Positions 1,848 through 60,473 of a stretch of DNA of 64,000 bases are shown here, one piece after another. Made by a program: the position numbers and the translations under genes. The notes under the pieces are model-generated. The model did no database searches. It had not been told where the DNA came from and saw only the letters and a list, made by a program, of their open reading frames with translations. The number at the start of each line of letters is the position of its first letter. Position 1 is the first letter of the stretch. Origin of the DNA: Shouchella clausii (GTDB taxonomy: Bacteria > Bacillota > Bacilli > Bacillales > Bacillaceae_D); assembly GCF_001598215.1 (NCBI RefSeq), contig NZ_BCXJ01000003.1, positions 186,001-250,000 of the forward strand. Reading direction: 5' to 3'.

Positions 1848-1859
1848 GTTTCCACCTCA

Positions 1860-2702: not shown

Positions 2703-2771
2703 ATGGATCTCCTCCTATTAGAGTCATGTCCTACTCTTTTTAGGATACCGGATCAAGTAACTAAAAACCTA

Positions 2772-16843: not shown

Positions 16844-16935
16844 GGCACCCTCCTTAACATGGACTTACCTTTAGGCTACTAGGAAAATATTATAGAGGGA
16901 AATATCGATTTTCTTTGACGTTCCATAAAAATTTT

Positions 16936-17805: not shown

Positions 17806-17873
17806 TATTGGCCCCCCTTGCCGTTTTTGTGTGCCTATTATACATGATTATTAAAAATATTTATCGGATTTTA

Positions 17874-17883
17874 TAGAATTCTA
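17874..17883. promoter_or_regulatory. palindrome in the lysR-tctC spacer, candidate LysR site
   Basis: TAGAATTCTA is a perfect 10-base palindrome inside an AT-rich 143-base region between the divergent regulator and tctC genes, where a LysR activator would bind. T-N11-A patterns surround it, but AT-richness makes these weak evidence. Confidence 0.3.
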
Positions 17884-17948
17884 CTATTTTACTTATGTTT
17901 TGCAATCGCTTACAATTCGATTCAAGACATTGCAAACGAGGTGAAAAA

Positions 17949-19070: not shown

Positions 19071-19148
19071 TTTAACGGTGGCGGACTTTTCCTTATTTTA
19101 CCTATTTCATTTCAACTGACAGCATCCATAAAAAAGGAGGCGACTGCT

Positions 19149-20639: not shown

Positions 20640-21076
20640 CAAAAGACTTATTTAATATTGGTTTTACTAGTTTCTTGTTGCTTGTTTTTGGATTCGCTGT
20701 TTTTGGAGCTTTGCAATTTTCACGGTTGGCGCAGTTTTTCCCACTTTATGTTTCGGCTGCCGGGACCGTTTGTACAGCGATTTACTTAGTTGTTTTAATC
20801 ATCCGGTATCGAAAAGAAAATGATCCAGACTCACAGGCGGTGGTCTCCATTGTCCGGCCACTCCGCTATATTGCATGGCTTCTTGGCTACATTGCCTTCA
20901 TTTATCTTGCAGGCATGTTGATTGCCACTTCACTGTTCCTCGTCGCTTTCTTGATGTTTGAATCGAAAATGCCATTTATAAAGACTGCCCTTTCTGTCGC
21001 AATCGTGCTGCTCGCGATTTCAGCCGCTAGCTCCCTACTCGGTGTTTACTGGCCGACAAACTTGCTTGGGCTGTAA
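20636..21076 (+). CDS. tctB: TctB small membrane subunit of tricarboxylate transporter
   Basis: A 146-residue protein with four predicted membrane helices, the length and layout usual for TctB. Its ATG overlaps the stop of tctA. Sequence conservation in TctB is low, so the call rests on position, size and topology. It completes a TctC-TctA-TctB system transcribed with the PrpF-family gene downstream. Confidence 0.88.
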   Translation: MTKDLFNIGFTSFLLLVFGFAVFGALQFSRLAQFFPLYVSAAGTVCTAIYLVVLIIRYRKENDPDSQAVVSIVRPLRYIAWLLGYIAFIYLAGMLIATSLFLVAFLMFESKMPFIKTALSVAIVLLAISAASSLLGVYWPTNLLGL

Positions 21077-21106
21077 AAAGGGACATTGACCACTAGGAGT
21101 GAAGCA

Positions 21107-22264
21107 ATGATGAGAGAATATGAACGCATACGCGCTGCCATTATTCGCGGCGGCACAAGCAAAGGCGTCTTTATTTTACAAAACGAGCTGCCTGGAGACC
21201 CTAAAGTCCGCGATCAAGTCATCCTGTCCTTATACGGCCAGGATGCACGGCAAATTGATGGCCTTGGCGGAGCAGACGCCTTGACAAGCAAGTTTGCGAT
21301 GGTCCGTCCGTCTCCTTTGTCAGAAGCCGATATTGAGTATACATTCGGCCAAGTTGGGATTGGTACTGGTCATATCGACTACAATACCAATTGCGGGAAT
21401 ATTCTTAGCGGCGTTGGTCCGTTTGCCGTAGATGAGGGGCTTGTTTGCGTGAAGGAACCCTATACCAAAGTCCGTATCCATAACACCAATACAGATCGAA
21501 TCGTCATCGCCCATGTTCCCGTAGAAAACGGCCGTGCCAAGCAAGTAGGGAACTTTCATATTGACGGTGTCCTTGGCGGAGGCGCTAAAATCATGCTTGA
21601 TTTTCAAAACGCTGCTGGAGTAAAAACTGGCGCCCTTTTTCCAACAGGCGCACGAAAAGATTGGCTTGATTGCTCGTATGGCAAAATTGAAACGAGTATT
21701 GTCGATGTTACTACACCAGTCGCTTTTATAAAAGCTTCTGAAGTAGGAATGATAGGAGTAGAACTTCCTGAGCAGCTGAATCAAGAGCAACTGTTTCTGC
21801 TTGAGGAAATCCGTGGGGCAGCGGCAACAAAATTAGGTTTTGTCGCCCAGCCAGCAGACGCCGCACACTTTACACCTTCAAGTCCGAAATTGATTATCGT
21901 TGCTGAAGCACAAGACTACCAAACGACTGCCGGACGGGCTGTTCATAAGGCAGATATCGATTTCGTTGGCCGGGCGATGTCAATGCAACATATGCATAAA
22001 ACATTCCCTGTCACAGGCGGACTGTGCACTGCTGTTGCTTCCAAGCTAGCAGGCACTGTCGTCCATGAGTGCTGTTTTTACCATGCTCAAAATCAGCAAA
22101 TTGTCCGTGTTGGACACCCTTCCGGCACAATGGAGTTTCATGTATCCGTCAAAGAAGCAAAAGGAATCGAACCAACGATTGAAAAAGCAGCTGTCGCCAG
22201 GACGGCACGGCGTATAATGGAAGGGTTTGCGTACGCGCCGGCTGCTTTGTTTTGGGGACACTGA
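21107..22264 (+). CDS. PrpF-family isomerase (aconitate/methylaconitate isomerase-like)
   Basis: A 385-residue protein of the PrpF family, built like diaminopimelate epimerase and working by proton shifts at a carbon next to a carboxylate. Seen: IRAAIIRGGTSKGVFILQNE, QIDGLGGADALTSKFAMV, the catalytic-Cys motif YNTNCGNILSGVGPFAVDEG, and GGGAKIMLDFQNAAG. Members include 2-methylaconitate cis-trans isomerase, aconitate isomerase and 4-oxalomesaconate tautomerase. Next to a tricarboxylate transporter and TcuA-like dehydrogenase, interconversion of cis- and trans-aconitate is the best guess. Two adjacent ATGs (21107, 21110) follow TAGGAGTG; either could start. Confidence 0.87.
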   Translation: MMREYERIRAAIIRGGTSKGVFILQNELPGDPKVRDQVILSLYGQDARQIDGLGGADALTSKFAMVRPSPLSEADIEYTFGQVGIGTGHIDYNTNCGNILSGVGPFAVDEGLVCVKEPYTKVRIHNTNTDRIVIAHVPVENGRAKQVGNFHIDGVLGGGAKIMLDFQNAAGVKTGALFPTGARKDWLDCSYGKIETSIVDVTTPVAFIKASEVGMIGVELPEQLNQEQLFLLEEIRGAAATKLGFVAQPADAAHFTPSSPKLIIVAEAQDYQTTAGRAVHKADIDFVGRAMSMQHMHKTFPVTGGLCTAVASKLAGTVVHECCFYHAQNQQIVRVGHPSGTMEFHVSVKEAKGIEPTIEKAAVARTARRIMEGFAYAPAALFWGH

Positions 22265-46564: not shown

Positions 46565-46774
46565 TTATTTTCCTGCTTTTCTTCGATCCGAAATTTGCTC
46601 AGCTCCTAGGCCATAGTTATCCATGTCAATTTCATCAATCACGACTACCGTTGATGCCGGATTTTTGTTTAATGTTTCAGCTAACAAATTGGTTACACCT
46701 TTAATTAAAGTATGCTTTTCTTCTTTTGTCAGACCTCCATTTTCTTTAGTGACTTTGATGTTTACGTACGGCAT
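46565..46774 (-). CDS. 4-oxalocrotonate tautomerase family protein
   Basis: A 69-residue tautomerase. The start Met is followed by Pro (MPYVNIKVTKENGG), and Pro1 is the catalytic base of this family; TLIKGVTNLLAETLNKNPAS and VVVIDEIDMDNYGLGAEQIS match DmpI/4-OT proteins. It acts on enol/keto forms of unsaturated acids, but no aromatic pathway is nearby. It overlaps the end of the MFS gene by 29 bases and lies on the same strand, so it is co-transcribed and translationally coupled to the transporter. Confidence 0.92.
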   Translation of the reverse strand: MPYVNIKVTKENGGLTKEEKHTLIKGVTNLLAETLNKNPASTVVVIDEIDMDNYGLGAEQISDRRKAGK

Positions 46775-47957
46775 TTAACGTATCCCCTTTCTGATCTTTT
46801 ATGAAATTTATGGTGATCAAAGCAGCTACAAGGACAACTGCTGAAATCATAAATGGAATGGTGAAATCATTTACAGAAATGAGTGTACCGGCCACAACAG
46901 GCCCCAATAATTGACCGATCGCGTAAGCTGCCGTTAATCCACTTACTAAATTTGGCCCTGCTGCCTCTAATGATTTCGCCAGAGTGAGCGTAAGTGTCGT
47001 GATTCCCATAAACGTAGCACCAAATCCTAACGCCGAAAGCAATGTCAGCAGCAGGTGATCTGTAAACACTGGTAGTAAAATACTAATGATTTGCGTCATA
47101 TACGCCCATTTTAGCGCGCGAATCGAAGACACCCTTGTGCCGAGCCAAGACCAGAAAAGACAAGACGGAATGACGCCAACACCTACGATCGCCCACACAT
47201 AAGAAGATTCAAATGTAAAAGATGGATTTTTGACCAACATAGCTGTTATAAACGTTCCGAAGATAATATAGCCAAAACCTTCACCTGTATAAGAAATATA
47301 TAAAGCATACTTTGCTTTTTTTTGTTTTCGGACGACTTCCGGATGTCTATTTTTGGGTGTTTGATCACTTAAAGAAGCTGATACATTGCTGTTCCCTTGC
47401 TTCCACATCCCCAAAAAGACCGCAACCATAAAGGCGACGCTTAAAAGTCCTAAACTTAACCATGCCCCTTCCCAGCCATAATTGGATTGAATCGTTGGGA
47501 TCGCTATCCCTGAAACGCATATCCCAAACCCTACCCCTCCATATAGGAAGCCGGAATAATACATTTTGCCGGTTTGATTTAAACGGGATAAAATCAAGTT
47601 AGAGACGATCACAAAAACCATGCCACTTGTAATGCCTGATAGCAACCGCCATATGGACCAGAGAATATAATTTTCCATCAAGCCCATTAATAGAGTCGTT
47701 CCAATATTGACGCCTAGCCCAATGTATAGCCACTTGTTACTTCGCGGTACATATCTAGCCCCTAATGCCCCTATAAAATAGCCTATGTAATTAAAGGTTG
47801 CTAACAGCCCTGCAGAAAAGGGGGTCAGCAATTGGTCCAATTCCATATAGGGAAAGATTGGTGTGTACGAAAACCTTCCAACCCCCATGACCACCGCTAA
47901 ACTTAAAAAACCTGAAAGCAATAATCGGTTATGGTGATTTGCAATCGTATTCTCCAT
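46746..47957 (-). CDS. MFS transporter, YbfB/YjiJ family
   Basis: A 403-residue protein with 12 predicted helices. The N-terminal VVMGVGRFSYTPIFPYMEL with DQLLTPFSAGLLATFNYIGY is the recognisable YbfB/YjiJ opening, and PSCLFWSWLGTRVSSIRALK and GPVVAGTLISVNDFTIPFM follow. Substrates of the family are unknown. Coupling with a tautomerase suggests that it brings in a compound handled by an enol-keto shift. GAGGGG precedes the ATG. Confidence 0.85.
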   Translation of the reverse strand: MENTIANHHNRLLLSGFLSLAVVMGVGRFSYTPIFPYMELDQLLTPFSAGLLATFNYIGYFIGALGARYVPRSNKWLYIGLGVNIGTTLLMGLMENYILWSIWRLLSGITSGMVFVIVSNLILSRLNQTGKMYYSGFLYGGVGFGICVSGIAIPTIQSNYGWEGAWLSLGLLSVAFMVAVFLGMWKQGNSNVSASLSDQTPKNRHPEVVRKQKKAKYALYISYTGEGFGYIIFGTFITAMLVKNPSFTFESSYVWAIVGVGVIPSCLFWSWLGTRVSSIRALKWAYMTQIISILLPVFTDHLLLTLLSALGFGATFMGITTLTLTLAKSLEAAGPNLVSGLTAAYAIGQLLGPVVAGTLISVNDFTIPFMISAVVLVAALITINFIKDQKGDTLNAVRKHQSH

Positions 47958-48129: not shown

Positions 48130-48163
48130 AAAAGCTTCTCCCTGTCTCCAGGCAGAAGCTTTT
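48130..48163 (-). terminator. terminator of the DUF917/DUF1177/OPT operon
   Basis: AAAAGCTTCTCCCTG (48130-48144) and CAGGCAGAAGCTTTT (48149-48163) form a 15-base stem with one mismatch; on the minus strand a run of T follows. It lies a few bases after the stop at 48167. Confidence 0.9.
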
Positions 48164-48166
48164 CCT

Positions 48167-49117
48167 TTATTGCACGATTTTTCCCTTTTCCAACACATGT
48201 TCGTCTCCAAGCCAAACACTTGGTGAAAGGGTAACACAGTCCAAATGGACACCGGCTTCAATTGTGCCACCGAATGTCTTGCTTGAACCAAAGGCAATGT
48301 GAATCGTACCGTATGCTTTTTCATCTTCGAGGATATTGCCAGTTACGCGGGCAGCTTCATTTGTGCCAATGCCAAATTCGGCAATGTAACGGCCATCGCC
48401 GTCACCTAGTAATTCTAACAATTTAGCTCCTTCTGTCCCACTAGCGCTCGCGAGCCGTCCATCTTTCACTGTAAGCAACGTTGGCTCTGACAGTTTGCCG
48501 ATGCCAGCGATCGAGCCGTCCACCCAAAATTGGCCGTGTGAGCCTTCGATTTGCGGGGCAATATAGCTTTCTCCAGAAGGCAAGTTGCCTGACGCCCCTT
48601 GCCCTGGAAATACGCCTGTGCTGCTAATGCCGTTACGTCCGTTAAGATTTAGGAACAGTTCATATTCGCCATTTGGACCTGTCTTAATCACAGCTGAATC
48701 AATTTGGTTAAGGCGTTTCGTAAATGATTCTGTCAAAGCAACTACTTTCGTGTAGTCTGCTTTCATTGCCCCTTCGGTGAACATGTCCATTGTGATCCCT
48801 GGCATTGTCAGCACTTTGGTTCCTTGGCTACTTGCCGCTTTCCGGGCGCTTGTATGTGTTAAGGAGTGTTGGCAAATACAAAAACAAATGTCCGCTGCTT
48901 TCATCATGTCGGCGACTGTGGACGGCGGCTCTTCCCCTGAACGACTCCGTGTTTGCATTAACACAAAGTCAGTAGCGTAGCCGAGTTCACATAAAGAGTC
49001 AAACACGCGCCGGCCAATTTCTTCTTTCTTTAAATCAGCAAGAACTACGACATGCTCATTTCCTGACGCTTTTACATTTTGTTCCATCATATTGTTGACA
49101 ATCTGTTTAAATTCCAT
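48167..49117 (-). CDS. M29 aminopeptidase/NicX-like metallohydrolase
   Basis: A 316-residue protein of the thermophilic aminopeptidase (M29)/NicX superfamily. The metal site appears as EFGIGTNEAARVTG, DEKAYGTIHIAFGSS and IEAGVHLDCVTLSPSV, giving the conserved Glu, His and His-x-Asp set. Members are annotated as leucyl aminopeptidases, but NicX-type relatives are ring-opening dioxygenases, so the reaction is open. The ATG at 49117 follows AAAGGGGG. It is the last gene of a six-gene operon and starts 72 bases after the aroM-like gene. Confidence 0.82.
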   Translation of the reverse strand: MEFKQIVNNMMEQNVKASGNEHVVVLADLKKEEIGRRVFDSLCELGYATDFVLMQTRSRSGEEPPSTVADMMKAADICFCICQHSLTHTSARKAASSQGTKVLTMPGITMDMFTEGAMKADYTKVVALTESFTKRLNQIDSAVIKTGPNGEYELFLNLNGRNGISSTGVFPGQGASGNLPSGESYIAPQIEGSHGQFWVDGSIAGIGKLSEPTLLTVKDGRLASASGTEGAKLLELLGDGDGRYIAEFGIGTNEAARVTGNILEDEKAYGTIHIAFGSSKTFGGTIEAGVHLDCVTLSPSVWLGDEHVLEKGKIVQ

Positions 49118-49188
49118 TTCAATCCCCCTTTCCTCTCCATCCAGTATAAAGCGAGTGGGCGAAATTCGATAGCTTTTCAATCAGGCGC

Positions 49189-49842
49189 TTATGCTAGCTC
49201 TGCCGCTGCTCGGGCGACTGCACTGCGAGCAAGAATCACAGGTAGCCCCGTCGCCACTTGAGCCCGCTGTTTATGAGCATTTGTATAACCCATGCAGTCG
49301 AGGACGAGCAATGTAGCCCCTTGTTCTTTTAGAGCTGCAGCCGCTCCTTCAATATCAGACGGCGCATATGGCGTCGCCGCTTCTGAGACAAGAGGGAGAT
49401 CGCCCCACTTTCCGGCTAGCTGGTGTATTTGTTCTTCCAAAGGCACGATCGCGCCAAGTGTACCGTCACCAATAACCCCTTGGACAAAATGGCAGAGGAT
49501 TTTGTCAGGAAACAACAGCGGCTTTTCATGTTGAATCGTTGGGAAGTGGCCAGTGCACACAATGATCGAGCTCGAGACGTGCTTCTCGACTTTTTGCAAT
49601 TCCGCTTGCAAGTAAGGAAGCAATTTTTGTTTAGAAAGTTTGGCGCTGTCCCCGTTCCTGAGGCGCGAGACATACGTCTGCTCATCAGGATGGGGAGCGA
49701 GCGCTTTTATTTGCTCAGTCGATAAAGAGTCAAGAGCGCCTGCTTCTACAAACTCGACGCCAGCGCCAAGAAAGGGCTGCATTTCAGGAGTCATGTCCAC
49801 TCGTGGTGATTGCCCAATTGTGACAAGCCCTATTTTTTTCAT
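49189..49842 (-). CDS. AroM family protein
   Basis: A 217-residue AroM-family protein: MKKIGLVTIGQSPRVDMTPE at the N-terminus, VCTGHFPTIQHEKPLLFPDK and TLLVLDCMGYTNAHKQRAQV. The fold is related to Asp/Glu racemases, with Cys residues in ICTGHF-like and DCMGY motifs in the same places as their catalytic pair. AroM of E. coli has no known function. Here it follows DUF1177 with 1 base between stop and start, so it belongs to this operon. Confidence 0.9.
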   Translation of the reverse strand: MKKIGLVTIGQSPRVDMTPEMQPFLGAGVEFVEAGALDSLSTEQIKALAPHPDEQTYVSRLRNGDSAKLSKQKLLPYLQAELQKVEKHVSSSIIVCTGHFPTIQHEKPLLFPDKILCHFVQGVIGDGTLGAIVPLEEQIHQLAGKWGDLPLVSEAATPYAPSDIEGAAAALKEQGATLLVLDCMGYTNAHKQRAQVATGLPVILARSAVARAAAELA

Positions 49843-49843
49843 G

Positions 49844-50782
49844 TTACTTGCCCTGTCCCATCGTTTGCAGAACGTTCATCGGACCATACAACTGTTGCAA
49901 ATGGGAAAATTCATTTTCATCGTAGAAACGCGTTGTGCCCGCCGTATATTCCTTCGCTGTCTCGATCGCAAACCGTACCGCTTGGGCAATGTCCACCTCA
50001 TGACTAGCGCCTGTGCCACAACCAGGCACAGCAGACGTGGCTGTAATGGCGAGGCCAACAACTGGCGCGTTTGTCGCAACAGCCGGTTGGAGGATGGAAT
50101 TGATATGGTAAACATCATTTCCATAAGGTGTAATGTCCTGTGTCGTAATCGCAAATGTAGACGGAAGGTCCCCTGTCGTCATTTCCATAATGCGCAAGAG
50201 GTCATCGCTAAACTTCAAAATATATCCTTCTTTGACTGTAGGAGAGATGGCGATCCCTTTATGTTTAATGATTTTATTGCCTTTCGTCGTGTCAATGGAA
50301 AGGATTGCTTCCATTTCCGGCAGCACTTCATGCTTGTTCATTGTTAAAATGTCAACAGGGGAACCCATGAAATCGACTGGCTCGTGTGGAACTGTTGGCG
50401 CATTTGGGCAAATGTGTGTCGTGATCAACACATCTCCAGGAAGGCGATCGCCTTTTTCAGCCATCTCCGCTAACTTGAGCGCAGCAGCAACTGCCGCAAC
50501 AGCCCCGTCTGCATCGGAAACAAGCCCAATCCGGCTTGGCCGAGCGCCAATCCCGCCAAGGCGACCGACAATCCCGAATGTCGGCGCATTTCCACCAGAT
50601 TGTTTCCCATTCGTGCCTTCGATCTGGATTTTCACAAAATCGGTCGATCCTTGTTCACCAGTCACCGTTGTTGTTTCTGCTTTGGCATAAGTATATCCGC
50701 TAAACAACGCTGCTACTTTCTCGCCATTAATAGCAGGATCGTCTAACATTTCCACTATTTGCATCGTATACGTCAATGACAT
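49844..50782 (-). CDS. DUF1177 domain protein
   Basis: A 312-residue protein of the DUF1177 family: MQIVEMLDDPAINGEKVAAL, FGIVGRLGGIGARPSRIGLV, GDVLITTHICPNAPTVPHEP and TAVPGCGTGASHEVDIAQA-like text near residue 250. The His/Asp/Glu-rich blocks (TTHICP, SDADGA, IEAILSIDTTKGN) suggest a metal enzyme similar to M20/M42-like amidohydrolases, but this is inference. No function is published as far as I know. It follows the DUF917 gene by 39 bases and uses GGGAGAG. Confidence 0.92.
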   Translation of the reverse strand: MSLTYTMQIVEMLDDPAINGEKVAALFSGYTYAKAETTTVTGEQGSTDFVKIQIEGTNGKQSGGNAPTFGIVGRLGGIGARPSRIGLVSDADGAVAAVAAALKLAEMAEKGDRLPGDVLITTHICPNAPTVPHEPVDFMGSPVDILTMNKHEVLPEMEAILSIDTTKGNKIIKHKGIAISPTVKEGYILKFSDDLLRIMEMTTGDLPSTFAITTQDITPYGNDVYHINSILQPAVATNAPVVGLAITATSAVPGCGTGASHEVDIAQAVRFAIETAKEYTAGTTRFYDENEFSHLQQLYGPMNVLQTMGQGK

Positions 50783-50821
50783 CTTCGATCTCTCCCTTAT
50801 GTTTGTGTTTGTGATATGCCT

Positions 50822-51871
50822 TCACACGATTGTCTTTTGAATAACTGGTTCAATCGTGCGCAGCAACCGTTCATTCTCCATCGTTGAGCTAAGAAGTAGC
50901 TCCGATTGTGGCACGCAAATAACCGCCAGTTTTTGGCCGTTTTTCACTTCAGCGCTTACGATAGGCTGCCCCGTATCAGCATCAAATGTCATAATTAAAT
51001 CAGGGAACGTTCCTTTCCGTTCGCCGTTTTCTTCTAATGTCATAAATTCATTCCAAAATGTCAGTTCAATTCCGTCCACATCCAAACGGCCGACATCAAA
51101 CCCGCCTTCTGTTTTCAACTCAAAACTGCGCACATGACCGACTTTGACAACGCGGCCATGTAGAGCTGCTGTGACGGCCTCAATTTTGCTGCTGCCCTCT
51201 TTTTCTGCTAAAAAGGCTTTGCCGATTTCCATCGCTTTTGAAATTCCGCCGACTGCCCCATGGGCTTTCACATAAGCAACACTTACTGGATTGCGGGCAA
51301 CGCCAACCATTCCACCAGCCTCAACCGACATACGACGAATGACGTTTCCGACATAGTCAAGCGTCCCGGAGACAAATCCGCTAATCGCACGGCTGCCAAA
51401 TCCGCCAGCAGCCGCTTGGTAGGATACATAATCTTGTTGCTCAGACAAGTTCAGCGCCCCCATCGCCCCTGTAGGGTGTGCCCTGCCGTTGCAAGGAGCG
51501 TCAATGACTGGCAGGCCAGTCATTGCTGCTTGAAGCCAGCCATTGATCGTCGTTGCAGCGCCATTTTCATTAGTCATAATCGCTTTAATGGTGCCTGGAT
51601 AATTTTTTTGCAACAATTCAACGGTCGCGAGCAATTGGTTGTCGTCAACGTACTGGTCTTTGGCGGCTGGTGCGCCGACGAGGGAGACGCATACGACCTC
51701 ATCATTGTCGTTTAATTCATCGACGCTAATGAGCTCTACTTTGCCTTTCGCCAGAGCAGCCCGCCCTTTTTCAAGCCCCTGGGCGATCCAGCCGCCGCCA
51801 CCGCCGCCAAGGATCGCTCCACCGTATACAGCTTGCTCAACCATCTCTGCTGTCAATACTGTTCGTGCCAT
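50822..51871 (-). CDS. DUF917 family protein
   Basis: A 349-residue DUF917 protein: GGAILGGGGGGWIAQGLEKG, VVCVSLVGAPAAKDQYV, MTNENGAATTINGWLQAAMT, PVIDAPCNGRAHPTGAMGAL and TFDADTGQPIVSAEVKNGQK are the family landmarks. DUF917 proteins are linked to hydantoinase/OPLAH-type genes in other bacteria, and the glycine-rich N-terminus suggests nucleotide or metal binding; no reaction has been shown that I know of. It starts 18 bases after the OPT transporter and is followed by DUF1177. Confidence 0.92.
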   Translation of the reverse strand: MARTVLTAEMVEQAVYGGAILGGGGGGWIAQGLEKGRAALAKGKVELISVDELNDNDEVVCVSLVGAPAAKDQYVDDNQLLATVELLQKNYPGTIKAIMTNENGAATTINGWLQAAMTGLPVIDAPCNGRAHPTGAMGALNLSEQQDYVSYQAAAGGFGSRAISGFVSGTLDYVGNVIRRMSVEAGGMVGVARNPVSVAYVKAHGAVGGISKAMEIGKAFLAEKEGSSKIEAVTAALHGRVVKVGHVRSFELKTEGGFDVGRLDVDGIELTFWNEFMTLEENGERKGTFPDLIMTFDADTGQPIVSAEVKNGQKLAVICVPQSELLLSSTMENERLLRTIEPVIQKTIV

Positions 51872-51889
51872 TCTCTCTCTCCTTCCAAA

Positions 51890-53470
51890 TTACCGGGCTT
51901 TAAAGACAGAGCTAAAGAAACTGTAAAGCGCATCTCCAGCAATGAATCCAGCTGCGGTTGTAAACATTGCCGATTCACCGGCTTCGCCTTTCCATTTCAA
52001 AATGACAACTCGTGCAAGTATGCCCACGAGAACGGCCCAACCAGCCCAAGGGTTCATCACCAGCAGACCAGTAGCAAGCATAATGCCAAGCTGGCGTTTA
52101 GCCCCACCAATCAATTGAATGATCGCTCCAGGAATGGCCCAAATCAGCAGATACTTTCCTGTTTCGCCAACAATGCCTTCTTGTATCGTTGCCGCAAATA
52201 CGCGGTCAACAGGCGGAACCAAGTCTTGGGCAAAATACATCTGATGGAAAAGTAGTACCATCACAATGGCTACCACGAGCCCGATTATGCCGGCAATAAG
52301 CTGCAAGCGTCGGCCGTGTAGCTCTTGTTGCCAATTGTCGCGGCCCCTGATTAAAAATCCTGTCTTTAAATCAAATCCAAAATCGGCAAAAGCAGGACCA
52401 GTAGCCGCCGTGTACCCAGTGAGCAAAGCCAAGGCAATTGGCGGAAACCCGAGCATGATCCCGATTAACAGCACAATTAACGTAACGGCAAAAGCAGGGA
52501 ACCAGCCAGAGTGCATCGCAGCGACACCGACGATCATTTCTGAAACCAATGTCGCAAAAGCCGCAAAAAGAATAAATAACACCATTTGACCGACTGACAA
52601 TTCAGTATAGAGTCCCGCTAGAAAAGCAACGAGCATAGCGCCAATGACATAGGCAAGAAACCCAAAGCCAAATCCTTTTGCTACATCAAGTTCACTGCGT
52701 GTATACACATGCTCGGAAGCTTGTTCTGATTTCTTGGTGATCGTCTGCTTTTTACTCATTTGCCCTTTGATAATCGTGTAAATGAACTGAAGCAAAGCAA
52801 CGAGACCAGCACCGATCATCATCCCGTGTGGAATATAATAATCGTTGAGGTTAATGTGAAACCATGGCTGTGAATAGCCGTTGATCAGCAAACCGATGCC
52901 AAACATTGACAGCGCCCAAATGTTTCCAATAAAAGCGACACCAAACGCTGACATTGGAATGCCTAGCGCCGAGCCGGCCACCCCGCCAGCGATGCCGATG
53001 CCAAGGAATTTAGCCTTTTTTCCGCCTTCATCACCAGCACGGAGCGCTTCTGCCGTAGCAGCGCCAGACGGCCATGCTTCATTGGCGCCAAACAGTTTGG
53101 AATCAAATACTTTATATAAAATAAGGGCATCAATGATTAAAGCGAAACCTGCTCCCACAAGCATCGGGAAAACAAGTTCAGGCAGCCCCATTACAAAAGG
53201 AATCCCAATCGGAATAAGCAAACTGTTTGCCGCTCCAAATGTGGCCGCTGAAATCGTCGTCTGCACCAAATTTTGCGTTTCCAATTGGCGATAGCGGTGG
53301 AACATTTGCATTGGAATGCGAGCAATTAACATTGCAATCATTGCACCAATAATAGAAGTATTTGGTGTTACGCCAAGAGTGGTAATAATTTGCATACCGA
53401 TAATCGCCCCAAAAACGGCAATCAATACGGATAGCAAAATCAAAGTCCAGTCAAATGTGCGTTGTTTCAT
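51890..53470 (-). CDS. OPT family oligopeptide-like transporter (short form)
   Basis: A 526-residue membrane protein with about 14 helices in the OPT superfamily. Seen: IIGAMIAMLIARIPMQMFHR, ANSLLIPIGIPFVMGLPELV, LFGANEAWPSGAATAEALRA and the repeat PPIALALLTGYTAATGPAFA with DFGFDLKTGFLIRG. It is shorter than the usual 600-700 residue OPT proteins. OPT members carry small peptides, glutathione or metal-chelator complexes. It is the second gene of the operon, 5 bases after the racemase, so it most probably imports the compound the downstream enzymes handle. Confidence 0.9.
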   Translation of the reverse strand: MKQRTFDWTLILLSVLIAVFGAIIGMQIITTLGVTPNTSIIGAMIAMLIARIPMQMFHRYRQLETQNLVQTTISAATFGAANSLLIPIGIPFVMGLPELVFPMLVGAGFALIIDALILYKVFDSKLFGANEAWPSGAATAEALRAGDEGGKKAKFLGIGIAGGVAGSALGIPMSAFGVAFIGNIWALSMFGIGLLINGYSQPWFHINLNDYYIPHGMMIGAGLVALLQFIYTIIKGQMSKKQTITKKSEQASEHVYTRSELDVAKGFGFGFLAYVIGAMLVAFLAGLYTELSVGQMVLFILFAAFATLVSEMIVGVAAMHSGWFPAFAVTLIVLLIGIMLGFPPIALALLTGYTAATGPAFADFGFDLKTGFLIRGRDNWQQELHGRRLQLIAGIIGLVVAIVMVLLFHQMYFAQDLVPPVDRVFAATIQEGIVGETGKYLLIWAIPGAIIQLIGGAKRQLGIMLATGLLVMNPWAGWAVLVGILARVVILKWKGEAGESAMFTTAAGFIAGDALYSFFSSVFKAR

Positions 53471-53475
53471 GTCAT

Positions 53476-54117
53476 TTACCTCCTCTGGCGGATCATTGAA
53501 TACGCCATGCCTTGTGCTTCAACTAAATCAATTACAGGCACTGCGAGTTCCTTTATAATCGTTTCTTTTAAATGAATGGTTGAATAACCTGTACAAGCAA
53601 ACAAGATAGCAGTCGCTCCTTGCTCAACAAGCTGCCGGGCCGATGAAACGGCTTCAGCTTGCGTCTCTCGTTTTAGTAAATCAGTTGTATTTGTGACGCC
53701 ATTCGGGACAAGATGGCCAACTAGCCGTTCGCCTAAAACTGTTTCAATTGCTTCAGGTATTTTATTTGTTAAGCCAAGAACACCAATCTTGTTGCTAATC
53801 ATGCATGCAGCATGGGCCCCTGCCTCGCCAGCACCTATGACCGGAATCGATACGGCTGCCCGGCTGAAGTCAAGCGCTGGATCTGCTGCACAGCTAATGG
53901 AAATCGCGTCGATGTCAGCATCGGCTGCCATCTCTTTAACTAGCGCTGTTATTTTCGGCAAAGCCGCTGCTTTTGATTCCTGGTTGTAAATGCCATATGG
54001 CTGATCTGGAATGCAATTGCTTTTAGAGTTAATGCCCATCCTTTGTCGCAATAGGACAGAATGTTCTTGCAATAATTGCTCGTCTTCGGTTGTCCATACA
54101 CGAACGATGCCAAGCAT
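53476..54117 (-). CDS. Asp/Glu/hydantoin racemase family protein
   Basis: A 213-residue racemase-fold protein with the catalytic cysteine pair in AISISCAADPALDFSRAAVS and ATAILFACTGYSTIHLKETI, and VIGAGEAGAHAACMISNKIG between them. Members invert aspartate, glutamate, hydantoins or maleate. ATG at 54117 follows GGTGG with good spacing; the ATG four codons upstream abuts AAAAAGG and is less likely. First gene of the operon; the stereochemical inversion of an imported compound would fit here. Confidence 0.88.
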   Translation of the reverse strand: MLGIVRVWTTEDEQLLQEHSVLLRQRMGINSKSNCIPDQPYGIYNQESKAAALPKITALVKEMAADADIDAISISCAADPALDFSRAAVSIPVIGAGEAGAHAACMISNKIGVLGLTNKIPEAIETVLGERLVGHLVPNGVTNTTDLLKRETQAEAVSSARQLVEQGATAILFACTGYSTIHLKETIIKELAVPVIDLVEAQGMAYSMIRQRR

Positions 54118-54169
54118 AATTTCCACCATCCTTTTTAGACACTATAAATTTTTGATGCGATATTAAAAA

Positions 54170-54218
54170 TGCCCAATGTATGCAAAATGATAAAAGCGTT
54201 CATTGCACACATTGGGCA
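54170..54218. promoter_or_regulatory. long inverted repeat upstream of the racemase-OPT operon
   Basis: TGCCCAATGTATGC (54170-54183) and GCACACATTGGGCA (54205-54218) are inverted copies with one mismatch, spaced by 21 bases. It lies 50 to 100 bases upstream of the first gene of the operon and just beyond the PucR gene's end (54286). It could be the PucR binding site, or a terminator-like hairpin of the PucR transcript. The unusual wide spacing fits a dimer or tetramer bridging two half sites. Confidence 0.5.
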
Positions 54219-54285
54219 GAAGCATTGTCAAAAAACGCGCTGTTGCTACGATTCAGCGCCTTCTTCATGTCATATTTTCTTACAT

Positions 54286-55830
54286 CTATTTTTTCATTTT
54301 TAAAACAAAATAAAGCAGAAATCGAACTTCACTGTCATTAAGATCGACCATCAGCCGCTCTTCAATTTTTTCTAAACGGTATTTCAACGTACGTCGATGA
54401 ACAAATAATTTTTCTGCCGTTTTTGAATGGTTGCCGTTCTCACGGAGAAACACTTCTAGCGTGTGGAGCAATGCTTCGCCTGCATAGCGATCCGCTGATT
54501 CCAGTGGTTTTAATGTACTCGCGGCAAAAGCCTGAACATCTTCGTCATTTTTAAGTTTCGTCATGATCCGCTCAAACCCCATCTGCTCGTACAAACAAAT
54601 TTTTTGTGCTTCCCCGCTCTCCTCTAAAGCTGCACGAGCCTCGAGGTAAGCTTGTTTGGCCAGCGGTATAGCATCGTAAGCTAGGCTCACTCCTACCTGA
54701 AATGATACATCCATTTCCTCCTCAAGCTCTTTTAACATACGACCGATGGAAGAAATCGTTTTTGCACGGCCTTGATCACGAGTGAACGTGTACAGGATAA
54801 TAAAGTTGCCGCCTTTGCAAATCAAGGTTGCATTTGGAAAATAACGGTCCAGTTTTTTATATAGTTGATGTAGAAATAGAGCAGAAATCGGTTCTTTCTC
54901 AACAGGCGGTCCTGCTATTCTTCTCATTGCCAAAAAGCCGAAATAGCTGCTTTTGTCGATCAACGTATGGATTGGGGAACTGGCTGGCACGTCGTTTTTG
55001 TCAATCAGCTCCGTGACCAACACTTTTTCTTCATTGGCACGTTTATTGACTTGATAAAGCCGTTTCCGTAATAAAAACCGGATTTGTTCCTCTAAAAATG
55101 TTGCCGCCTTCTTTAATACAGATGTCCATACATGTTCCTTTTCGTGCGGCACGCCTATTACAACAGAGCAGCGCAAACCTGCCTCTGCTTTTTTGAAAAC
55201 AAGTCGAACTTGTCGTTTATCAAAGCGCGTTTGTTTTGCTGGTTGCGAAAACCAGATAAACGCTTGTCGTTCCGCTGTCACTTTGTTGTTCGCATAAGCG
55301 ATTAGCCGCTTCTCTTCGCTTTCAAGCAACACATTCTCCCCTGTAAGCTTTCCTAACCCTTCCAAAAAATCGTGTAATTTCCGGGCTTCGCCAAGCTTAT
55401 AGACTGCTTCCAGAAGTTGCGCTTCTTCAGATTGCGCTTCTTTAAACTTTGTCTCGAATAAGATGGTCAGTAAGCCCACAAAAGAAACTTCTACAGGAAT
55501 GGCAATAATAGGCATATTATGTTCATCAGCAAGGCGCAGCATCGTTTCTGGCAATGTGTGAACATAACGGCCAATTTTGACAACGAGACCGGCGCCATTT
55601 ACTTCAATTAACTTCCGAAACATGCTGATTTGCGCTTCTGGATTGTCTTTGACCGAGTAAAATGTCGAAATAATTAAAATCCCTTCTGTCAGCCATTCAT
55701 TAATATCAGGGACTTCCATCACTTCAGCTGCTTTAATTTTCCGATACAAACCACCTTCACCGGCAAGTACACGAGCGAGCTTTAAATCGCCTAACTGTAA
55801 AGCTTCGCCTACAATCATTTCCAACACCAT
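54286..55830 (-). CDS. PucR family transcriptional regulator
   Basis: A 514-residue activator. Residues about 10-130 are the PucR N-terminal domain (VGEALQLGDLKLARVLAGEG, IKAAEVMEVPDINEWLTEGI, MPIIAIPVEVSFVGLLTILF); residues 280-400 form the GGDEF-like central domain; the C-terminal 60 residues hold the HTH_30 (LEVFLRENGNHSKTAEKLFV, HRRTLKYRLEKIEERLMVDL). PucR in B. subtilis senses allantoin-like purine catabolites; relatives control nitrogen-compound breakdown. Its position before the racemase-OPT-DUF917-DUF1177-AroM-M29 unit points to that operon as its target. It has no ribosome binding site oddities. Confidence 0.92.
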   Translation of the reverse strand: MVLEMIVGEALQLGDLKLARVLAGEGGLYRKIKAAEVMEVPDINEWLTEGILIISTFYSVKDNPEAQISMFRKLIEVNGAGLVVKIGRYVHTLPETMLRLADEHNMPIIAIPVEVSFVGLLTILFETKFKEAQSEEAQLLEAVYKLGEARKLHDFLEGLGKLTGENVLLESEEKRLIAYANNKVTAERQAFIWFSQPAKQTRFDKRQVRLVFKKAEAGLRCSVVIGVPHEKEHVWTSVLKKAATFLEEQIRFLLRKRLYQVNKRANEEKVLVTELIDKNDVPASSPIHTLIDKSSYFGFLAMRRIAGPPVEKEPISALFLHQLYKKLDRYFPNATLICKGGNFIILYTFTRDQGRAKTISSIGRMLKELEEEMDVSFQVGVSLAYDAIPLAKQAYLEARAALEESGEAQKICLYEQMGFERIMTKLKNDEDVQAFAASTLKPLESADRYAGEALLHTLEVFLRENGNHSKTAEKLFVHRRTLKYRLEKIEERLMVDLNDSEVRFLLYFVLKMKK

Positions 55831-56121: not shown

Positions 56122-57540
56122 ATGGAATTTAAAGACAATCAATCATTTGGAAGCGGTTTTTTATGGGGGGCGTCTACTTCTGCTTTTCAAGTAGAAGGAG
56201 CAAGCGAAAAAGATGGAAAAGGGCTTTCAGTAATTGATATGATGAAAAAAAATCCAACCATTACAGACTTCTCTGTCGCTTCTGACCACTATCATCGCTT
56301 TAAAGAAGACGTTGCACTGATGGCCGAGCTAGGCTTAAACGTGTATCGTTTTTCAATTGCTTGGACCCGCATTTTTCCAAATGGAAATGGAGAGATTAAT
56401 GAAAAGGGTGTAGCATTTTATAATGAATTGATTGATGAGTTGGTTAAACATCAGATTGAACCTCTTGTCACCATTTACCATTTTGACTATCCGCAAAGTC
56501 TTGTTGACCAGTATGGCGGCTGGATTTCCCGCCAAAGCATTGAAGACTTCCACGCGTACGCTGAATTTCTTTTTAAAACTTACGGAGATCGCGTCAAATA
56601 CTGGTTAACAATTAACGAACAAGACCATGTAGTTCGGATTCCTAGCCGCCTTGGGTTAACAGGTGACGACCGTTATGAACAAATGAAATTAGGCTATCAA
56701 GCAAACCATCACATGTGTGTAGCCACAGCTCGAGTCATTGAGACATTTTACCGTCTTGGATTAAAGGGCAAAATTGGTCCAGCCGTCTCCTATTCAATGG
56801 TTCATCCAGCGAGCTCGAAGCCAGAAGATGTGTTGGCCAGCAAAGACGCTATGCTTATTAAACACAATTATTTATTGGACTTGCATTGTTATGGCGAATA
56901 CTCAAAGCCATTCCAAAAGTATTTAAATGACCGCCATTATATGCCGCGCATGGAAGCTGGCGATTTGGAATTGATGAAACAAAATCCGCCAACTATGATT
57001 GGCGTAAACTATTACTTTTCAGAAACAGTCCAAGCATTCCCCGCCTCGGAAGAATTTCCGATTGGCTATCAAAAAGAAGCGTTGCTTGCTGAGGCGGAAG
57101 CAGGGGTCTTTCAAGTTGTACCAAATGAACGCCTTCAAGCGACCGACTGGGGTTGGGAAATTGATCCAATTGGGCTTCGCCTAACATTGCGCGAACTTCA
57201 CGAACGGTACCGCCTACCCATTATTATTACCGAAAATGGCCTAGGTGCTTATGATGAGTTAGAGGAAGGCGACGTCGTTCAAGACGACTACCGGATTTCC
57301 TATTTAAATGAGCATATAAAACAAGTAAAATTAGCTTTAAATGATGGAGTTGATGTATTAGGATATTGCGCTTGGACGTTTATGGATGTCGTCAGTGGGC
57401 GCAACGGCATGGACAAGCGCTATGGCTTTGTCTATGTAAACAGGGAAAATTTTGATTTGAAGGATATGAGGAGAATTAAGAAGAAAAGTTTCCATTGGTA
57501 TCAAAAGGTCATTCAAACAAATGGGGAAAGCCTATCATAA
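56122..57540 (+). CDS. bglA: 6-phospho-beta-glucosidase (GH1)
   Basis: A 472-residue GH1 enzyme that splits the 6-phosphate of aryl- or cellobiose-type beta-glucosides delivered by the PTS. Seen: FLWGASTSAFQVEGASEKDG at the start, the acid/base Glu in WLTINEQDHVV, the nucleophile in IIITENGLGAYDEL, and the phosphate-binding Ser/Lys/Tyr region SGRNGMDKRYGFVYVNRENF. It is shorter and more diverged than B. subtilis BglH. It is the first gene behind the first LicT switch and is followed 75 bases later by licT. Confidence 0.93.
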   Translation: MEFKDNQSFGSGFLWGASTSAFQVEGASEKDGKGLSVIDMMKKNPTITDFSVASDHYHRFKEDVALMAELGLNVYRFSIAWTRIFPNGNGEINEKGVAFYNELIDELVKHQIEPLVTIYHFDYPQSLVDQYGGWISRQSIEDFHAYAEFLFKTYGDRVKYWLTINEQDHVVRIPSRLGLTGDDRYEQMKLGYQANHHMCVATARVIETFYRLGLKGKIGPAVSYSMVHPASSKPEDVLASKDAMLIKHNYLLDLHCYGEYSKPFQKYLNDRHYMPRMEAGDLELMKQNPPTMIGVNYYFSETVQAFPASEEFPIGYQKEALLAEAEAGVFQVVPNERLQATDWGWEIDPIGLRLTLRELHERYRLPIIITENGLGAYDELEEGDVVQDDYRISYLNEHIKQVKLALNDGVDVLGYCAWTFMDVVSGRNGMDKRYGFVYVNRENFDLKDMRRIKKKSFHWYQKVIQTNGESLS

Positions 57541-57615
57541 AATCGCAAATGGCCTTGATCGTAGTGGTCCAACTCCTTCATGGATAAGATCAAAGCGAAA
57601 TGTGAGGAAAATCAA

Positions 57616-58449
57616 ATGCGCATTAAAAAAGTATTTAACAATAATGTTTCGCTAGTCGTAGATGGGGACGAAGAAAAAATTCTGATGGGAAAAGGGATTG
57701 GTTTCCAAAAGAAAGTTGGCGATGCAATCGATGAATCGCTGATTGAAAAAACGTTCGTTTTGTCTTCAAACACCCACCCATTGGAACAATTATCAACCTT
57801 TTTTAACGAGGTTCCGCTTGAAATTGTTGCTTTAACTAGTGACCTTATCCACAAAGGCCGCCAACTTTTAGGGACACACATAGGCGATAATTTGCTTATC
57901 CCGTTATCAGATCATATATGGTTTGCTCTTGAACGAGTAAGTGAGGGGATCGAAGTCGACTATCCTTTAAAGTGGGAAATGAAACATATGTATCCAGACG
58001 AGTATGCATATGCGAAACAAGCATTAAACGAAATCGAAAAAAAAACCAAGCAAGCGCTCCCCCCTTCTGAGGTGGTGCCAATTGCGATGCACTTTGTCAA
58101 TGCCCGATATGGAGCTAATAGTTATCATCAAACGTACGAAATGACAGCTATTGTCGCAAAAATTAAAGACGTCATTCATTATCACTATTTTATGGATATT
58201 AACGAAGATTCTCTTCATTATGCGCGTTTTATTACCCATCTTCGCTACTTTATTTTAAGGCAAATGGCTGGGGAAGCACATGCTTCTGGCGATCAACTCT
58301 TTGACCATATGGTTAAAGAAAAATACCCAAAAGCATACAGTTGTGCGATCAAGGTCAAGAAATTGCTTGAGAGCACAATGGGTTGGACGGTTGATGATGA
58401 TGAAGTCACTTATTTAACCATTCACATTCAACGGCTCACAACCCTTTAA
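57616..58449 (+). CDS. licT: BglG family transcription antiterminator (LicT-like)
   Basis: A 277-residue antiterminator. Residues 1-55 are the CAT RNA-binding domain (MRIKKVFNNNVSLVVDGDEE), followed by PRD1 (about 65-165, ending near LKWEMKHMYPDEYAYAKQA) and PRD2 (about 175-270, with DINEDSLHYARFITHLRYFI). PRD histidines are phosphorylated by the PTS: phospho-HPr activates, while the beta-glucoside EII inhibits in the absence of sugar. ATG at 57616 follows GTGAGGAA. It sits between the glucosidase and the EII genes and should act on both RAT sites. Confidence 0.94.
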   Translation: MRIKKVFNNNVSLVVDGDEEKILMGKGIGFQKKVGDAIDESLIEKTFVLSSNTHPLEQLSTFFNEVPLEIVALTSDLIHKGRQLLGTHIGDNLLIPLSDHIWFALERVSEGIEVDYPLKWEMKHMYPDEYAYAKQALNEIEKKTKQALPPSEVVPIAMHFVNARYGANSYHQTYEMTAIVAKIKDVIHYHYFMDINEDSLHYARFITHLRYFILRQMAGEAHASGDQLFDHMVKEKYPKAYSCAIKVKKLLESTMGWTVDDDEVTYLTIHIQRLTTL

Positions 58450-58470
58450 CTAAAAAGACTGATCCATGCA

Positions 58471-58573
58471 GGATTGTTACTGGTAAGCAGGCATGACCTA
58501 AATGGACGAACATGTTCTTCTCGCCGTTCTGGCGTTTGAAGTTCTTTGTCCCGTCTTCATTTAGGTCTTTTTT
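58471..58573 (+). promoter_or_regulatory. LicT antiterminator (RAT) and terminator, second copy
   Basis: The second RAT (58471-58499), GGATTGTTACTGG to GGCATGACC, precedes a terminator whose outer stem GACCTAAATG (58495-58504) pairs with CATTTAGGTC (58558-58567) and is followed by TTTTTT. The site lies between licT and the EII gene, so the permease is controlled separately from the glucosidase. The two RAT sites share most positions but differ in the loop. Confidence 0.9.
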
Positions 58574-58601
58574 GTCTGTTTTTCTCTTATGAAAGGACTG
58601 A

Positions 58602-60473
<1,872 letters not shown>

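What the first reader, a model, noticed from the sequence alone, without database searches (positions are those of the whole stretch)
48167..55830. Compact PucR-racemase-OPT-DUF917-DUF1177-AroM-M29 operon: candidate undescribed catabolic pathway
Six genes on the minus strand with gaps of 1 to 72 bases code for an importer (OPT), a cysteine-pair racemase, three proteins without an established reaction (DUF917, DUF1177, AroM) and a metallohydrolase of the M29/NicX type, with a PucR-type activator just upstream. Seen directly: gene order, tight spacing, the shared strand, one terminator at 48130-48163 and one long inverted repeat at 54170-54218. From family knowledge: PucR regulates catabolism of nitrogen compounds, OPT carries small peptides and chelates, and racemases of this fold handle amino acids and hydantoins. 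Inference: the set is a complete route for a chiral nitrogen compound such as a cyclic dipeptide, hydantoin or D-peptide.
Basis: partly seen in the sequence, partly recalled or inferred. Interest (0 to 1): 0.8.

Follow-up and report, generated by a model that had tools for sequence, protein, structure and literature searches.

The report
Conserved peptide-catabolism operon, four uncharacterised enzymes
Seven neighbouring genes in a Bacillus relative form a real, widely shared unit that probably imports and takes apart small peptide-like molecules, and it contains several enzyme families whose reactions are still unknown.

Summary
The operon is real and conserved. Gene order, spacing, terminator and inverted repeat are as described. 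In 398 sampled genomes of the phylum, DUF1177 is in 46 and AroM (strong matches) in 40; 35 have both (Fisher P 4e-35), within 5 kb in 28. The full six-gene set recurs in 12 of 42 DUF1177 loci of that draw and 29 of 80 closest-relative loci; 13 of the 42 have none of the five partners. OPT and Dpp-type peptide ABC importers never share a run (63 and 18 of 122). An archaeal plasmid carries DUF917-DUF1177-AroM-aminopeptidase-racemase. New here: DUF1177 is predicted to have a zinc-exopeptidase fold with an altered site; the DUF1177-linked DUF917 is its own subfamily; the inverted repeat matches a palindrome, TTGTGC-N5-GCACAA, kept beside PucR across genera. AroM folds like hydantoin racemases and keeps both cysteines. 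Best reading: import, epimerisation and hydrolysis of a small peptide, perhaps cyclised or with D-residues; the substrate is unproven. A 2024 paper (PMC11055893) already reported racemase, DUF917, AroM and OPT near cyclodipeptide-oxidase-like genes; DUF1177 does not occur in its text.

The parts
54286..55830 (-). PucR-type transcriptional activator (PucR, GGDEF_2, HTH_30 domains)
   Evidence: Pfam
54230..54266 (-). terminator-like hairpin after pucR (GGCGCTG...CAGCGC then GTTTTTT)
   Evidence: sequence, fold
54170..54218 (.). inverted repeat TGCCCAATGTGTGCAA-N17-TTGCATACATTGGGCA; candidate PucR operator, long-spacer form of TGTGC...GCACA, with one mismatch in this strain
54141..54146 (-). putative -10 element TATAGT, 23 bases after the inverted repeat, kept in L089, L171 and L173
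   Evidence: sequence; inference by eye
53476..54117 (-). Asp/Glu/hydantoin racemase, both catalytic cysteines kept (C80, C179 counted in the 217-aa ORF starting at 54129)
   Evidence: Pfam; 2eq5 hydantoin racemase E 4.7e-45; conservation
51890..53470 (-). OPT-family importer
   Evidence: Pfam; Dpp-type ABC importers stand in other clusters
50822..51871 (-). DUF917 / S-Me-THD-family protein of a DUF1177-linked subfamily
49844..50782 (-). DUF1177 protein, predicted zinc-exopeptidase (M28/M20/M17-like) fold
49189..49842 (-). AroM protein, hydantoin/Asp/Glu racemase fold with both cysteines (C96, C183)
48167..49117 (-). M29-type metallopeptidase; conserved candidate ligands E204, E268, H294, H312, D314 (numbered in the 337-aa ORF)
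48130..48163 (-). intrinsic terminator of the operon

Best explanation
This is a substrate-induced scavenging operon for a small peptide-type compound. OPT imports it. PucR senses it (or a product) and activates transcription from the inverted repeat just upstream of the racemase promoter. Two cofactor-free two-cysteine racemases (Race and AroM) epimerise activated alpha-carbons, so that mixed-chirality material can be used. DUF917 and DUF1177 act on amide or imide bonds, DUF917 most plausibly opening a ring and DUF1177 hydrolysing or binding the opened peptide on a modified zinc-exopeptidase scaffold. M29 (PepE in enterobacterial clusters) releases the amino acids. My preferred substrate class is a cyclised dipeptide (2,5-diketopiperazine) or peptide-derived hydantoin. 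Shown: operon anatomy, co-occurrence, exchange of importer types, predicted folds, the conserved palindrome. Inferred: each enzyme's reaction, the order of steps, the regulator's site and the substrate.
For: Clustering of DUF1177 and AroM: 35 genomes with both of 398 (4.6 expected), 28 of 35 within 5 kb. Race, OPT, DUF917, DUF1177, AroM and M29 in one co-directional run in 12 of 42 phylum-draw loci and 29 of 80 GTDB-contig loci. OPT and Dpp-type ABC importers: 63 and 18 of 122 runs, 0 overlap, P 4e-7; M29 only in runs with AroM, 68 of 68; AroM in 14 of 18 ABC-type runs. PepE, not M29, in 5 of the 80 GTDB runs and two enterobacterial plasmid clusters. The own genome's second DUF1177 lies with a Dpp-type ABC importer, an M20 deacylase and IclR. 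Race is close to a structure deposited as hydantoin racemase. AroM's model best matches hydantoin and allantoin racemases, with both cysteines at least 97% conserved. DUF1177's model matches M28, M17 and M20 zinc exopeptidases, best E 7.8e-9. The nitroreductase plus DUF6092 (cyclodipeptide-oxidase-like) pair is in 8 of 80 GTDB runs and 1 of 42 draw runs. Palindrome at the same place across genera and in clusters with other importers.
Against: No substrate, activity or expression data. 13 of 42 draw loci have none of AroM, Race, DUF917, OPT or M29 in the DUF1177 run, and 11 of 46 DUF1177 genomes lack a strong AroM match, so DUF1177 also works in other settings. The cyclodipeptide-oxidase partner is absent from the own genome and its genome-wide link to DUF1177 is not significant: 3 of 10 DUF6092 genomes have DUF1177, 1.2 expected, P 0.10. 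M20 enzymes do not replace M29: 8 of 12 runs with M20 also have M29. DUF1177 lacks recognisable HxD and EE metal motifs, and profile comparison to M28 and M20 is not significant, so it may not be a zinc hydrolase. DUF917's named relatives act on thiohydantoins, not diketopiperazines.
Confidence: 0.45

Rival explanations
1. Scavenging of linear peptides with unusual residues (D-residues, isopeptide or N-acyl bonds, e.g. cell-wall or modified dipeptides), with no ring-opening step; DUF917 and DUF1177 remove a modification or act as unusual peptidases.
For: Importers are of peptide type (OPT; SBP_bac_5 ABC in the paralogous cluster); associated enzymes are peptidases or deacylases (M29, PepE, M20 ArgE/DapE type); DUF1177 has an exopeptidase-like fold; PepE clusters have no DUF917 in the run (0 of 5; plasmids).
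Against: Race's nearest solved relative is called a hydantoin racemase, and DUF917 relatives work on five-membered imide rings; cyclodipeptide-oxidase-like pairs occur in some clusters.
Confidence: 0.28
2. Hydantoin, allantoin or thiohydantoin catabolism (purine-type or ergothioneine-derived), with DUF917 as the ring enzyme as in S-methyl thiohydantoin desulfurase.
For: DUF917 family names, hydantoin-racemase-like Race and AroM, PucR-type regulator; PMC11055893 prefers hydantoin or allantoin.
Against: The DUF917 here is of a subfamily 22-27% identical to HyuA-linked copies, with its own conserved polar residues; scores far below NCBIfam cut-offs; none of the window operon's genes matches a hydantoinase, carbamoylase or allantoinase family; the importer classes are of peptide type.
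Confidence: 0.14
3. Uptake and recycling of a peptide-like metal chelate (OPT/YSL-type), for example an opine-like metallophore.
For: OPT/YSL proteins of plants and fungi carry metal chelates (recalled, no call).
Against: Dpp-type peptide ABC importers stand in OPT's place in other clusters; regulators are PucR and IclR types rather than metal regulators.
Confidence: 0.07
4. Chance neighbours with unrelated roles.
For: Nothing beyond the lack of experimental data.
Against: Co-occurrence and synteny across the phylum, in enterobacteria and in an archaeon.
Confidence: 0.02

Closest known systems
Non-CDPS cyclodipeptide-oxidase-like gene clusters (PMC11055893; section 6 read, other passages)
   Same: Hydantoin-type racemase, DUF917, AroM, OPT or Dpp importers, EamA and peptidases are reported there; 8 of 80 GTDB runs here carry the nitroreductase plus PF19585 pair and 15 of 80 an EamA gene.
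   Different: The window operon has no cyclodipeptide-oxidase pair and no PF19585 was found in its genome. 'DUF1177' has 0 occurrences in the paper's main text.
S-methyl thiohydantoin desulfurase / thiohydantoin desulfurase (PF06032+PF20906; NF058529, NF058532)
   Same: Both Pfam domains matched.
   Different: Below both NCBIfam cut-offs; separate subfamily with its own conserved residues; no HyuA or cytosine permease beside it in the window.
Hydantoin racemase of Pyrococcus horikoshii (PDB 2eq5)
   Same: Race matches at E 4.7e-45; AroM has the same fold; both keep two cysteines.
   Different: The substrate of Race and AroM is not known; AroM shares 16% identity with 2eq5 in the structural match.
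M28, M17 and M20 zinc exopeptidases (1amp, 1gyt, DapE)
   Same: Fold of the DUF1177 model.
   Different: No detectable sequence similarity; canonical metal motifs not recognisable; 67 positions are at least 99% conserved in 136 sequences, which suggests its own chemistry (inference).
Enterobacterial plasmid cluster IclR-OPT-DUF1177-AroM-PepE-Race (NZ_CP057460.1, NZ_CP006570.1)
   Same: Same core with another regulator and peptidase.
   Different: No DUF917 in the cluster, PepE where the window has M29.

Membership tests
S-methyl thiohydantoin / thiohydantoin desulfurase (DUF917) | Both Pfam domains above curated cut-off | tested here: met
   85.6 and 102.5 bits against 27
S-methyl thiohydantoin / thiohydantoin desulfurase (DUF917) | NCBIfam equivalog cut-off | tested here: not met
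   275.4 versus 440 and 243.3 versus 450 bits
Two-cysteine (PLP-independent) racemase superfamily: Race | Pfam Asp_Glu_race and two catalytic cysteines | tested here: met
   83.7 bits versus 31; C80 and C179 at least 97% conserved in 78 relatives plus the window. That these are the catalytic pair is recalled from the family
Two-cysteine (PLP-independent) racemase superfamily: AroM | Same fold and two cysteines | tested here: met
   Foldseek best hit 2eq5, E 1.2e-7; C96 and C183 at least 97% conserved in 106 relatives plus the window
Two-cysteine racemase superfamily | Racemase activity | not testable with these tools
   needs enzymology
Zinc exopeptidase (M28/M20/M17-like): DUF1177 | Fold | tested here: met
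   174 PDB chains at E <= 0.001, the 50 shown are M28, M17, M20 and glutaminyl-cyclase entries; TM about 0.5; model pLDDT 82.9 with low-confidence loops at 133-137, 221-227 and 250-258
Zinc exopeptidase (M28/M20/M17-like): DUF1177 | Co-catalytic metal ligands (HxD, D, EE, D, H; recalled) | tested here: inconclusive
   Read by eye: D90 and D164 sit where two of the aspartates would; HxD and EE not seen; hhalign not significant; coordinates not available for superposition
M29 metallopeptidase | Pfam match and E, E, H, H, D metal ligands | tested here: met
   41.4 bits versus 27; E204, E268, H294 at least 85% and H312, D314 at least 97% conserved in 78 relatives plus the window. Assignment of these as the ligands is recalled from the family, not computed
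Cyclodipeptide-oxidase cluster | Nitroreductase plus DUF6092 pair | tested here: not met
   None in the window operon; no PF19585 match in G000 (where 10 other genomes rang)
PucR-regulated operon | PucR-family gene adjacent with a conserved operator | tested here: inconclusive
   Gene adjacent; palindrome conserved at the site; binding not testable here

The most novel reading that the evidence does not exclude
A peptide-ring catabolic pathway shared by bacteria and archaea and not yet described: AroM is an epimerase for cyclic or imide-activated peptide units, the DUF1177-linked DUF917 subfamily opens the ring, and DUF1177 is a zinc-exopeptidase-fold enzyme with a new active site, under a PucR regulator reading the TTGTGC-N5-GCACAA element, with importers and end peptidases as exchangeable cassettes.
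Probability: 0.25. Interest if true: 0.8.

Novelty: new variant of a known kind. Interest (0 to 1): 0.58.

Why it matters
AroM has had a name but no demonstrated function since its 1986 sequencing paper (seen in the reference list of PMC11055893, which also calls the family experimentally uncharacterised). I found no function for DUF1177: in the held library the term appears in one paper, where it describes plant E3 ligases. The neighbourhood data tie both, and a DUF917 subfamily, to peptide importers and peptidases, so all three become testable by one growth and one enzyme screen. If the substrates are diketopiperazines, it would explain how microbes recycle a class of compounds that is common in food, cultures and soil (recalled).

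Tried and rejected
Sequence search of DUF1177 against the PDB found nothing at E up to 1, and Pfam at E up to 10 gave only DUF1177 plus scattered matches in one or two members. M29 had no PDB sequence match at E 0.1; AroM only two weak chance-level ones. hhalign of DUF1177 against M28 and M20 was not significant. Of the five M28 loci I read in that script four gave no sequence because my motif filter failed, so the M28 side was effectively one sequence. The M20 alignment falls on the segment with D90, but I do not use it as evidence.

I considered that the window inverted repeat is only a terminator. A separate terminator-like hairpin precedes it, and the TGTGC/GCACA core is shared by loci whose outer stems differ. 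But the window repeat is itself followed by ATTTTTAA, and in many relatives the palindrome lies 13-26 bases after the pucR stop within a longer hairpin; both roles remain possible. The shuffle control keeps base composition only, and five of its 18 positive loci are close Shouchella relatives.

Cyclodipeptide oxidase as an obligatory partner was rejected: 3 of 10 DUF6092 genomes hold DUF1177, of 398 (P 0.10), and none in the own genome. M20 as a replacement for M29 was rejected for these loci: 8 of 12 runs with M20 also hold M29. The PepE-M29 exclusion rests on five GTDB loci (L126, L156, L157, L160, L162), four of them enterobacterial by record title, so it may reflect lineage; the OPT-ABC exclusion likewise is not corrected for relatedness. 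Paper searches (all 10 allowed) found no description of this operon beyond PMC11055893; they did not ask for the palindrome, and most subscription journals are not in that library. A phage search with the racemase gave no match.

Counting rules and dropped rows. One search uses strong AroM matches only: 40 of the 45 genomes at E <= 0.001; G092, G128, G240, G266 and the fragmentary G372 were dropped. The coordinates were typed, leaving out two short DUF1177 fragments (one each in G053 and G185, whose other pieces were kept). Of 46 DUF1177 genomes in the draw I fetched 42 loci; G000 is the window, and G053, G255 and G185 (broken or partial) were left out. Of 7 plasmid records matched I fetched 6, leaving out a near-duplicate Planococcus record. 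'Run' means co-directional ORFs with gaps under 250 bases from a simple ORF picker, and short contigs cut some clusters, so counts are lower bounds.
Full report
WHAT IS THERE. The window lies in a genome of 4.66 Mb (G000). The nearest named loci are Shouchella tritolerans and S. rhizosphaerae at 97-98% identity for DUF1177, so S. clausii or a near relative is likely (inference). All seven genes are confirmed by Pfam. The gaps between the six structural genes are 5, 18, 39, 1 and 71 bases (with M29 from ATG 49117 and Race from ATG 54117). A strong hairpin with a T run ends the set. PucR stands 156-168 bases upstream on the same strand, with its own terminator-like hairpin. The downstream MFS gene (46746-47957) follows the terminator and is not counted in.

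IS IT MORE THAN CHANCE. In one draw of 398 genomes of the phylum, DUF1177 occurs in 46 and strong AroM in 40. 35 have both, where 4.6 are expected, Fisher P 3.7e-35, and 28 of the 35 have them within 5 kb. I read 136 stretches: 42 DUF1177 loci of the draw, 80 from GTDB contigs, 6 from plasmids, 6 from four genomes of the window's own family, the window and its neighbour L003. Race, OPT, DUF917, DUF1177, AroM and M29 together in one co-directional run: 12 of 42, 29 of 80 and 1 of 6 plasmid loci. Against this, 13 of the 42 and 2 of the 80 have none of the five partners in the run, so DUF1177 is not confined to this set. An archaeal plasmid (Salinigranum rubrum) has DUF917-DUF1177-AroM-aminopeptidase, then a racemase, behind an ABC importer. 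Enterobacterial plasmids (Klebsiella, Sodalis) have IclR-OPT-DUF1177-AroM-PepE-racemase.

HOW THE PARTS SWAP. Over the 122 draw and GTDB loci, OPT is in 63 runs and a Dpp-type ABC importer in 18, never both (P 4.3e-7). M29 is in 68 runs, all with AroM (P 2.7e-10). PepE (5 runs) and M29 never co-occur (P 0.015), but M20 does co-occur with M29 (8 of its 12 runs). PucR and IclR nearly exclude each other (49 and 21 runs, one overlap, P 1e-4). OPT goes with DUF917 (52 of 63) and Race (49 of 63) (all). AroM is in 14 of the 18 ABC-type runs. None of these tests is corrected for relatedness. The own genome has a second DUF1177 (63% identical) about 20 kb away with Dpp-type ABC genes, an ArgE/DapE-type M20 enzyme, IclR and two divergent amidohydrolases. 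A peptide-type importer is therefore the commonest shared feature besides AroM, and the peptidase is variable.

THE UNCHARACTERISED PROTEINS. DUF1177 is unusually constant: 52-98% identity to the window copy in 135 relatives, one of them archaeal, with 67 positions at least 99% conserved. Its AlphaFold model (pLDDT 82.9, pTM 0.88) matches M28, M17 and M20 zinc exopeptidases (best E 7.8e-9, TM about 0.5), though no sequence method I tried sees this. By eye, D90 and D164 fall where two metal-binding aspartates of the fold would, while the usual HxD and EE motifs are absent and H123, H133 and H226 are conserved (inference, no superposition possible). Some conserved loops are modelled with low confidence. 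AroM's model (pLDDT 92.9) best matches hydantoin and allantoin racemases, and C96 and C183 are at least 97% conserved among 106 relatives plus the window. With Race (C80, C179) the operon thus has two two-cysteine racemase-type proteins; PMC11055893 reached the same fold for AroM. The DUF917 copies within two genes of DUF1177 share residues (N101, N110, N128, H132, Y148, Q152, R193, N194, D259, W273, R285, T288; 62-65 of 66 at each) that nine HyuA-linked DUF917 copies lack; those and two odd DUF1177-linked copies (L109, L164) are 22-27% identical to the window's, the rest at least 37%. The phylum search shows the same split: 20 copies beside DUF1177 score 63-115 bits with PF20906, most others 128-265; a few low scorers lie beside AroM without DUF1177 (G154, G255, G350) or are fragments.

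THE REGULATORY SITE. The window's repeat 54170-54218 contains TGTGC-N21-GCATA, one mismatch from the TGTGC-N21-GCACA of five relatives (L089, L090, L171, L173, L176). In other genera the same place holds TTGTGC-N5-GCACAA. Of 47 PucR-Race or PucR-OPT spacers, 18 have TGTGC-N(1-25)-GCACA, against a mean of 0.03 (maximum 2) in 500 composition shuffles. Of 20 exact N5 matches in all 136 loci, 18 lie directly downstream of a PucR gene, including Dpp-type clusters (L066, L069) and clusters with other importers (L087, L169, L170); the two exceptions are L067 and L133. Of 74 PucR 3' regions examined 19 have an exact and 9 a one-mismatch copy, so 46 do not. In the own genome the long form occurs once at up to 3 mismatches. 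A TATAGT hexamer lies 23 bases after the repeat and 23 before the ATG at 54117. I take the repeat as the PucR operator (inference); a terminator role is not excluded.

MECHANISM. Import by OPT, sensing by PucR, epimerisation by Race and AroM, ring or amide opening by DUF917 and DUF1177, release of amino acids by M29. The substrate is most likely a small peptide with cyclised or D-configured units. Support for the cyclic form: hydantoin-racemase likeness, DUF917's imide-ring relatives, and cyclodipeptide-oxidase-like pairs (both genes in 8 of 80 GTDB runs and 1 of 42 draw runs). Against: the pair is missing here, and genome-wide only 3 of 10 DUF6092 genomes have DUF1177 (P 0.10). Linear unusual peptides remain a serious rival.

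WHAT IS KNOWN. PMC11055893 (section 6 read, other passages found by term) reported PF01177 racemases, DUF917, AroM, OPT, Dpp, EamA and peptidases near CDO-like genes and suggested hydantoin or allantoin substrates or secondary metabolism; DUF1177 has 0 occurrences there. PMC6061476 (passages) suggests that some bacterial 'oxoprolinase' genes may be cyclic dipeptide hydrolases; HyuA/HyuB-like genes occur in a few of our loci. PMC12915319, PMC7513527 and PMC9503626 (passages) mention DUF917 genes beside hydantoinase, permease or PucR genes without this operon. DUF1177 as core member, the exchange of importers, the separate DUF917 subfamily and DUF1177's fold were not found in searches, which cover open-licence PMC papers only; the palindrome was not searched for in print.

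VERDICT. Observation confirmed; interpretation partly supported; a conserved, partly described type of peptide-catabolic operon with new elements.

Noticed in passing
L003 7975-19116 (own genome C3, about 20 kb from the operon, outside the window): Second DUF1177 paralogue in a Dpp-type ABC, M20 deacylase, IclR cluster with two divergent amidohydrolase genes.
   Followed up: partly
L050 6955-7797 (-) and 7 further loci: A 274-286 aa family beside DUF1177 in 8 of 136 loci, mostly between DUF1177 and AroM; the representative has no Pfam or NCBIfam match.
   Followed up: partly
L096 10654-11556 and 14 further loci: EamA-type permease gene within the run in 15 of the 80 GTDB loci, perhaps an exporter of a product.
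   Followed up: no
54170-54218 and the same site in L089, L090, L173, L176: Arms of the repeat differ between close relatives; the window copy and L173 each have one mismatched pair, at different positions.
   Followed up: partly
G000:C1:916136-916702: A second DUF917 gene elsewhere in the genome that scores 226 bits with PF20906, unlike the operon copy's 103.
   Followed up: no
717-4157 (-): M20-type peptidase, RpiR-like regulator and a dicarboxylate- or AbgT-like permease in a row; names are my reading of the translations, no family search was run.
   Followed up: no
14262-22264: Genes that read like a flavoprotein, an isocitrate/isopropylmalate-type dehydrogenase, a LysR regulator, a TctC/TctA-like importer and a PrpF-like isomerase, perhaps a tricarboxylate utilisation cluster; by eye only.
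   Followed up: no
56122-60473 (+): Family 1 glycosidase, antiterminator-like gene and PTS transporter, upstream of pucR on the other strand (GH1 and PTS by Pfam; the middle gene by eye).
   Followed up: partly
L044 (NZ_CP057460.1 168388-187320): The core module on a conjugative Klebsiella plasmid with transposase genes on both sides, which suggests mobility.
   Followed up: no
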